Shown: piece after piece, positions 63,446 through 64,000 of the stretch | How positions within the stretch are numbered: the first letter of the stretch is position 1 | How the letters are laid out: each line of letters starts with the position of its first letter | Source: Oligoflexia bacterium | GTDB taxonomy: Bacteria > Bdellovibrionota > UBA1018 | Reading direction: 5' to 3' | Assembly: GCA_031292385.1 (NCBI GenBank) | Contig: JARLHE010000006.1 | Coordinates: 104,376 to 168,375 of the forward strand | DNA: 64,000 nucleotides | Made by a program: the position numbers and the translations under genes | Notes under the pieces: model-generated | Database searches by the model: none | The model's input: only the letters and a program-made list of their open reading frames with translations | Told to the model about the DNA's origin: nothing

Positions 63446-63474
63446 TTGCAAACTTCACCGTCATGCGCTATTTT
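63446..63474 (+). promoter_or_regulatory. Candidate sigma70 promoter for retron ncRNA
   Basis: TTGCAA (63446-63451), 17 nt, TATTTT (63469-63474); predicted start at ~63480. Confidence 0.4.
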
Positions 63475-63477
63475 GAC

Positions 63478-63644
63478 TTGGGGCTTGTTTCAAAATAATT
63501 TATTCTTGCTGTTGAAACTGCGGCACTTGAAGACGCTGGTAGGGGGCTTTTTACCTTACAGTAACACCTTACATCCTTTCGGCTATTGGCGATTTGGATG
63601 TCCTCGGCTTCGGGTAGGATAGAATTGAACGGAACAAGCCCCAA
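63478..63644 (+). ncRNA. Putative retron msr-msd ncRNA
   Basis: TTGGGGCTTGTTTC (63478-63491) pairs with GGAACAAGCCCCAA (63631-63644), 14 bp with one wobble. Lies immediately upstream of the RT start. Confidence 0.65.
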
Positions 63645-63647
63645 CCT

Positions 63648-64000
63648 ATGCCAAGCGAGAAACCTTTCAGAACAAACTACATGCAACAAAAGCTCAGCGA
63701 CTTGGAAGACCTGAGCGACATTGCCAAACTGCTCTCAACAACACCTCAAAAAATTGGGTTCATTTTATATCGCAGCCCCAATATTCGTGAAAGCCAATAC
63801 ACGGAATATACAATTCCAAAGAAGACGGGCGGTCAAAGAACAATAGCTGCTCCAGATAAGGCACTACTAATTTTACAGAGCCGCCTAAATCGAATTCTTC
63901 AGAAAGCCTACATTTCCCGCCCGTCAGCGCACGCCTTTGTTGAAGACAGGTCCATAAAGACCAACGCTCTTGTTCACCAACGGAGAAGGTTCGTCCTAAA
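63648..64000 (+). CDS. Retron-type reverse transcriptase (N-terminal part, runs off the window)
   Basis: MPSEKPFRTNYMQQKLSDLEDLSDIAKLLSTTPQKIGFILYRSPNIRESQYTEYTIPKKTGGQRTIAAPDKALLILQSRLNRILQKAYISRPSAHAFVEDRSIKTNALVHQRRRFVL. Confidence 0.85.
   Translation, partial: MPSEKPFRTNYMQQKLSDLEDLSDIAKLLSTTPQKIGFILYRSPNIRESQYTEYTIPKKTGGQRTIAAPDKALLILQSRLNRILQKAYISRPSAHAFVEDRSIKTNALVHQRRRFVL

What the first reader, a model, noticed from the sequence alone, without database searches (positions are those of the whole stretch)
63446..64000. Putative new retron: a1/a2 inverted repeat and promoter directly upstream of a retron-type RT
Seen: a 14-bp inverted repeat (63478-63491/63631-63644, one G-T wobble) bounds a 167-nt interval and ends 3 nt before the RT ATG. 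A -35/-10-like pair (TTGCAA-17-TATTTT) would start transcription on the left arm. The interval also holds ACATCC/GGATGT and other smaller pairings, plus a direct repeat ACCTTACA x2. Established: retrons consist of msr-msd ncRNA with a1/a2 arms just upstream of an RT whose N-terminus reads ..IPKK.GG.R.I.AP..L..LQ..L...L...aHaF...rSI.tNA..H. Inference: this is an uncharacterised retron. The branching G cannot be assigned by eye.
Basis: partly seen in the sequence, partly recalled or inferred. Interest (0 to 1): 0.87.

Follow-up and report, generated by a model that had tools for sequence, protein, structure and literature searches.

The report
RT-Toprim retron in a Bdellovibrionota genome
The end of this window carries the start of a retron, a bacterial anti-phage system in which a reverse transcriptase makes a small DNA-RNA hybrid that holds a fused RNA-cutting toxin in check; it is a new member of a known kind, related to E. 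coli Retron-Eco2, though the guanosine that normally primes the DNA is not where relatives have it.

Summary
The finding is real. A 14-bp a1/a2 repeat (63478-63491/63631-63644) bounds a structured 167-nt ncRNA ending 3 nt before a retron RT start. The window stops because the contig ends; the genome's only other RT-family hit is the start of another contig end (C60, 452 aa) that continues the protein with about 4 nt missing. Joined, it reads RT (NALVH, YADD, VTG) fused to a Toprim domain with all catalytic residues. Closest solved structure is Retron-Eco2 (Ec67); the best defence profile is RT-Toprim type I-C. Related loci in several phyla carry the arms and a covarying first stem-loop, so the msr-msd is supported independently of its own sequence. 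Its RT lies outside the Ec67-like clade. The canonical priming-G position (immediately after an inner helix, about 5 nt before the first stem-loop) reads U (63501) here and U/A in four relatives, but G in six others; no G lies between arm a1 and that stem-loop. The host is a Bdellovibrionota assembly; the retron sits beside integrase, AbiV-like, kinase and Fic genes. Verdict: a new member of a known kind, ordinary in mechanism, with one open question: which nucleotide primes. No msDNA was measured.

The parts
63478..63491 (+). a1: 5' arm of the msr-msd inverted repeat
   Evidence: 14-bp pairing with 63631-63644; equivalent arms upstream of related RTs
63496..63500 (+). inner helix, 5' strand (TAATT), pairs with 63623-63627
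   Evidence: helix ends exactly at the aligned branch position in all 11 loci compared; hand-parsed, short helices
63501..63501 (+). position aligned with the priming guanosine of relatives; U here (candidate branch nucleotide, inferred)
   Evidence: G in L014, L015, L082, L216-L218; U in window, L013, L219; A in L074, L076
63507..63525 (+). SL1: first msr stem-loop, TGCTG...CGGCA
   Evidence: fold; covariation in 17 loci, 97% of cells paired, 23 cells changed on both sides, 0/500 shuffles
63525..63622 (+). predicted msd template region (boundaries inferred), with hairpins including ACATCC/GGATGT
   Evidence: fold
63623..63627 (+). inner helix, 3' strand (AATTG)
63631..63644 (+). a2: 3' arm of the inverted repeat, 3 nt before the RT start codon
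63648..64000 (+). N-terminal 117 aa of the retron RT-Toprim protein, cut by the contig end; continues on G000:C60 124158-122803 (minus strand; L088 10801-12159)
63446..63474 (+). possible -35/-10 pair (TTGCAA-17-TATTTT), weak
   Evidence: sequence; not listed by the consensus scan

Best explanation
This is a chromosomal retron of the RT-Toprim (type I-C-like) kind. The ncRNA (about 63478-63644) folds through a1/a2; the RT binds its first stem-loop, starts DNA synthesis from the 2'-OH of a nucleotide at the end of the a1/a2 helix, and copies the msd into msDNA. As in Retron-Eco2, the msDNA is expected to hold the RT-Toprim protein in an inactive assembly; when a phage function damages or alters the msDNA, the Toprim domain is released to cut RNA and infection aborts. 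Shown here: the ncRNA architecture, the RT signature motifs, the Toprim fusion with intact catalytic residues, and conservation of the architecture. Inferred from Retron-Eco2: msDNA production, oligomeric inhibition, RNase activity, phage trigger. Inferred: the two contig ends are one gene.
For: Contig C27 ends inside the RT; the only RVT_1 hit in the genome search is at the end of C60, 5'-open, beginning DLEDFFPSI exactly where homologs continue after ..RRFVL-[N-x]. Both halves have P0003 as a close relative (57.5% and 55.5%). PADLOC RT-Toprim_I-C is best for the C60 part (E 2.7e-113). Toprim residues E244, D248, D310, D312, E351 and K419 are invariant in 72 homologs and correspond to the Eco2 residues named in PMC12405507. 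AlphaFold model mean pLDDT 92; best PDB matches are Retron-Eco2 9i2f/9lm3/9s1f, E about 1e-22 over about 520 columns. NALVH, YADD, VTG present. ncRNA: fold z -4.3, arms in related loci, SL1 covariation. 6806 of the 8000 scored candidates are homologs. Eco2 mechanism: PMC12405507.
Against: The join across contigs lacks about 4 nt and was not observed in one sequence. The RT lies outside the Ec67-like clade and the halves score 262 + 93 bits on NCBIfam retron_Ec67_fus, below its cut-off of 450. No G at the aligned priming position. No DNA was obtained for the RT's nearest relatives (P0003-P0009), so the ncRNA comparison rests on more distant loci. The model's global TM-score to Eco2 is low (about 0.4), reflecting domain arrangement. 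No expression, msDNA or phage data.
Confidence: 0.93

Rival explanations
1. A retron whose first reading from the N-terminal fragment is another fusion type (type XI RT-protease or XII RT-TIR), with the C60 RT being an unrelated second gene.
For: The 117-aa fragment alone scores best with RT-Protease_XI (3.5e-29) and RT-TIR_XII.
Against: C60 starts precisely at the next conserved residue, lies at a contig end, is the only other RT hit, lacks its own N-terminus, and shares the same close homolog. Types XI, XII and I-C have closely related RT domains.
Confidence: 0.03
2. A decayed or inactive retron: the ncRNA is intact-looking but no longer primes, because the priming G has been lost.
For: U at the aligned branch position and no G between a1 and SL1.
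Against: RT and Toprim frames are open with all catalytic residues; arms and SL1 are intact; other intact-looking relatives also lack G there (L013, L076, L219; L074 too, though its frame holds one TGA).
Confidence: 0.08
3. A detail of the best explanation rather than a full alternative: a retron that primes from a G inside the a1 helix (for example G63487, in CTTG) with a register different from Eco2.
For: The review PMC6868368 states that the stem contains or ends just before the priming G; a CTTG element recurs in a1 of L014, L015, L074, L217-L219.
Against: L013 has CTTC at that place; L014, L015, L217 and L218 have CTTG and also a G at the canonical position.
Confidence: 0.45
4. A non-retron RT (group II intron, DGR, DRT or Abi type) with a chance repeat upstream.
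For: The repeat alone could arise at about 2% of positions.
Against: Retron models outscore maturase and DRT models by far; retron motifs, Toprim fusion and conserved ncRNA.
Confidence: 0.01

Closest known systems
Retron-Eco2 (Ec67), type I-C, E. coli; structures 9i2f, 9lm3, 9s1f
   Same: RT fused to a C-terminal Toprim with the same catalytic residues; single-gene effector; a1/a2 arms, one short msr stem-loop after the branch site, msd hairpin; ncRNA with the RT gene
   Different: 28% identity over the structural alignment; RT outside the Ec67-like clade; Eco2 branch is G15 followed by AUUU, here U at the aligned place and an extra inner helix; Eco2 R184, which contacts rG15, is E here; NCBIfam Ec67 cut-off not reached
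Herpetosiphon aurantiacus plasmid pHAU01 RT, Haur_5150 (L013)
   Same: RT-Toprim, 42% identity over the C60 part; a1/a2, inner AATT helix, U at the aligned branch position and the same SL1
   Different: Different phylum; different arm and msd sequences; not characterised
Retron-Sen1 (Se72)
   Same: Reported in PMC6868368 as lacking an apparent priming guanosine
   Different: Not compared by sequence here
Type XI (RT-protease) and XII (RT-TIR) retrons
   Same: Closely related RT domain; single-gene fusion
   Different: Different effector domain; a Toprim is present here

Membership tests
Retron (any type) | Retron-type RT with NAxxH, YADD and VTG motifs | tested here: met
   NALVH in the window part; YADD and VTG in the C60 part
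Retron (any type) | ncRNA upstream of the RT bounded by complementary a1/a2 arms | tested here: met
   14 bp, 3 nt before the start; similar arms in related loci
Retron (any type) | Structured msr stem-loop conserved with the RT | tested here: met
   SL1 covariation, 0/500 shuffles; loci and registers were chosen by hand
Retron (any type) | Priming guanosine at the end of the a1 stem | tested here: inconclusive
   No G between a1 and SL1; aligned position is U; Gs exist inside a1
Retron (any type) | Branched 2'-5' linked msDNA is made | not testable with these tools
   needs extraction and sequencing
Type I-C (RT-Toprim fusion) | Toprim effector fused C-terminal to the RT with catalytic E/D, DxD, SxE, K | tested here: met
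   depends on joining the two contig ends
Type I-C (RT-Toprim fusion) | Toprim is an RNase silenced by msDNA until phage trigger | not testable with these tools
   known for Eco2 (PMC12405507)
Retron Ec67 family (NCBIfam NF038237) | Score over the curated cut-off of 450 | tested here: not met
   262 and 93 bits for the two halves; intact relative P0003 scores 359
Ec67-like clade | RT groups with Ec67-like RTs and ncRNA has a1 followed directly by GATTT | tested here: not met
   clade of 8 supported 100/98 without the window; no GATTT
Group II intron / DGR RT | Intron maturase or DGR RT as the best match | tested here: not met
   TIGR04416 35 bits against a cut-off of 300

The most novel reading that the evidence does not exclude
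This retron, and several RT-Toprim relatives in other phyla, start reverse transcription from a uridine or adenosine instead of the priming guanosine treated as near-universal in retrons: the inner helix, the spacer of about 5 nt and the first stem-loop are kept, but the branch position itself reads U or A.
Probability: 0.2. Interest if true: 0.6.

Novelty: new member of a known kind. Interest (0 to 1): 0.33.

Why it matters
It adds a retron from Bdellovibrionota, where RTs of this kind were found in 4 of 379 genomes searched, in a branch of RT-Toprim proteins that is well represented in metagenomes yet outside the clade of the one solved structure. If the missing priming G is real, these systems test whether retron RTs need guanosine for 2'-OH priming, which matters for the mechanism and for retron-based DNA production.

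Tried and rejected
Rfam at permissive threshold gave nothing. The promoter claim was not supported by the scan. No DNA was found for the closest RTs P0003-P0009: a viral-contig scan with P0003 found nothing, alignment scans returned only more distant RTs, and the GTDB scan gave five loci, none close. Eco2 R184 (contacts rG15) as a marker of G priming: R/K/H in the Ec67-like clade and mostly not in others, but also not R in relatives that have G, so it marks lineage, not the branch base. A tRNA-Asn attachment duplicate in the last 6 kb of the window: none of 12 nt or more. A second copy of the ncRNA in the genome: none. Automatic arm finding picked wrong pairs in some loci (for example L015, L026, L080), so those rows are not used as evidence. 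Mestre et al. 2020, which to my knowledge defines the types, is not in the paper library.

Full report
OBSERVATION. Every sequence statement in the finding was checked and is correct: the 14-bp inverted repeat at 63478-63491/63631-63644 with one wobble, a span of 167 nt, 3 nt to the ATG at 63648, the inner ACATCC/GGATGT pairing and the ACCTTACA repeat. The region folds better than all 200 shuffles (z -4.3). Taken alone the repeat is not extraordinary: an equally strong arm pair within the same search frame appears at 2.25% of random positions in the window. The promoter matches 8 of 12 consensus positions and was not picked up by the scan.

THE REST OF THE GENE. The window ends where contig C27 ends, so the RT is cut after 117 residues. 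A search of the same genome with the RT family found one place, the very end of contig C60 on the minus strand: a 452-aa frame that is open at its 5' end and starts DLEDFFPSI. Homologs read ..KFVLNLDLSDFF.., so the window part (..RRFVL plus the first two bases of an Asn/Lys codon) continues into C60 with about 4 nt missing. That the two ends are one gene is an inference, but a strong one: both pieces lie at contig ends, each lacks exactly what the other has, and both match P0003 at 55-58%.

WHAT THE PROTEIN IS. The joined reading has NAxxH (NALVH), YADD and VTG. PADLOC gives RT-Toprim_I-C at E 2.7e-113 for the C60 part. Residues matching the Eco2 Toprim catalytic set named in PMC12405507 (E, D, DxD, SxE, K) appear as E244, D248, D310/D312, S349/E351 and K419; all but S349 are invariant across 72 homologs (the correspondence was read by eye from the motifs). 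An AlphaFold model of the C60 part (mean pLDDT 92) matches Retron-Eco2 structures first, E about 1e-22, then other retron RTs. Homologs are abundant: 6806 of 8000 scored candidates.

PLACEMENT. In a tree of 49 RT domains the window groups with P0003, P0004, P0006 and P0009 (100/97), apart from a clade of eight Ec67-like RTs (100/98). NCBIfam's Ec67 model scores 262 and 93 bits on the two halves, under its cut-off of 450. It is therefore an RT-Toprim retron of the type I-C kind but not an Ec67-family member in the strict sense.

THE ncRNA. Of 55 loci encoding related RTs, 38 have an arm pair scoring 28 or more just upstream of the RT, against 5.6% of control positions; the sample contains near-copies and some mis-picked arms. 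In 17 loci from several phyla the first stem-loop aligns: 97% of cells paired, 23 cells changed on both sides, none of 500 shuffles as good, slid registers much worse. The loci and the register were chosen by eye, which favours pairing, but the compensatory changes are hard to explain otherwise.

THE BRANCH NUCLEOTIDE. In Eco2 the primer is G15, followed by rA16-rU19 and the stem-loop (PMC12405507). In cyanobacterial and Chloroflexota relatives an inner helix (for example CAATT/AATTG) ends exactly at a G that is followed by a short spacer, mostly ATTTY, and the stem-loop. In all 11 loci parsed this way the inner helix ends at the same place; the next base is G in L014, L015, L082, L216, L217 and L218, U in the window, L013 and L219, and A in L074 and L076. 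In the window no G lies between a1 and the stem-loop; the nearest upstream G is 14 nt away, inside a1. Either priming uses a G within a1, or it uses a non-G. The review PMC6868368 notes one earlier retron, Sen1, without an apparent priming G. The parsing was manual and the inner helices are only 3-7 bp, so this is a lead.

HOW IT PROBABLY WORKS. By analogy with Eco2 (PMC12405507): msDNA made from the ncRNA keeps the RT-Toprim protein in an inactive assembly; a phage nuclease that attacks msDNA frees the Toprim RNase and infection aborts. None of these steps was tested here.

CONTEXT. Ribose-phosphate pyrophosphokinase from C60 has its named relatives in Bdellovibrionia, Bdellovibrionales and Oligoflexia assemblies, so the host is most likely in Bdellovibrionota. 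RTs of this kind occur in 4 of 379 genomes of the phylum. Around the retron are a Fic protein (SoFic-like), a phage-type integrase and an AbiV-like HEPN protein upstream, and a Stk2-like kinase, a DUF2971 protein and a tRNA-Asn on C60, which looks like a defence island.

VERDICT. A real retron, correctly recognised; a new member of the known RT-Toprim kind. The one point of wider interest is the apparent lack of a priming guanosine.

Noticed in passing
window 60053-63327; L088 7911-10675: Likely defence island around the retron: SoFic-like Fic protein (60053-61291), integrase (62130-62756), AbiV-like HEPN protein (62815-63327), and on the C60 side a Stk2-like kinase, a DUF2971 protein and tRNA-Asn.
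   Followed up: partly
protein P0119 (740 aa, JGI metagenome): A relative with RT, a Toprim-like domain whose catalytic motifs are replaced (TSERSTW for TEGKTDW, FENVE for FDRDE) and an added C-terminal TIR domain: possibly a step from RT-Toprim to RT-TIR retrons with a dead Toprim kept as scaffold.
   Followed up: partly
L082 2171-4432 (Nostoc sp. HK-01 plasmid4): Related RT fused to an AAA_5 domain instead of Toprim, with the same kind of ncRNA and a G at the branch position.
   Followed up: partly
L014 and L015: Cyanobacterial plasmid relatives where the RT is a separate gene followed by a hypothetical protein and an ATPase gene, unlike the fused Toprim form.
   Followed up: no
L078, L079, L080: Relatives in the phylum of the Sulfurovum genome G379 have a TTTAACTTTT or TTTAATTTT spacer before the first stem-loop and no G after a1, a second possible non-G group.
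   Followed up: partly
window 64000 / G000:C27 end and G000:C60 end: The assembly breaks inside the RT gene with only about 4 nt missing; cause unknown.
   Followed up: no
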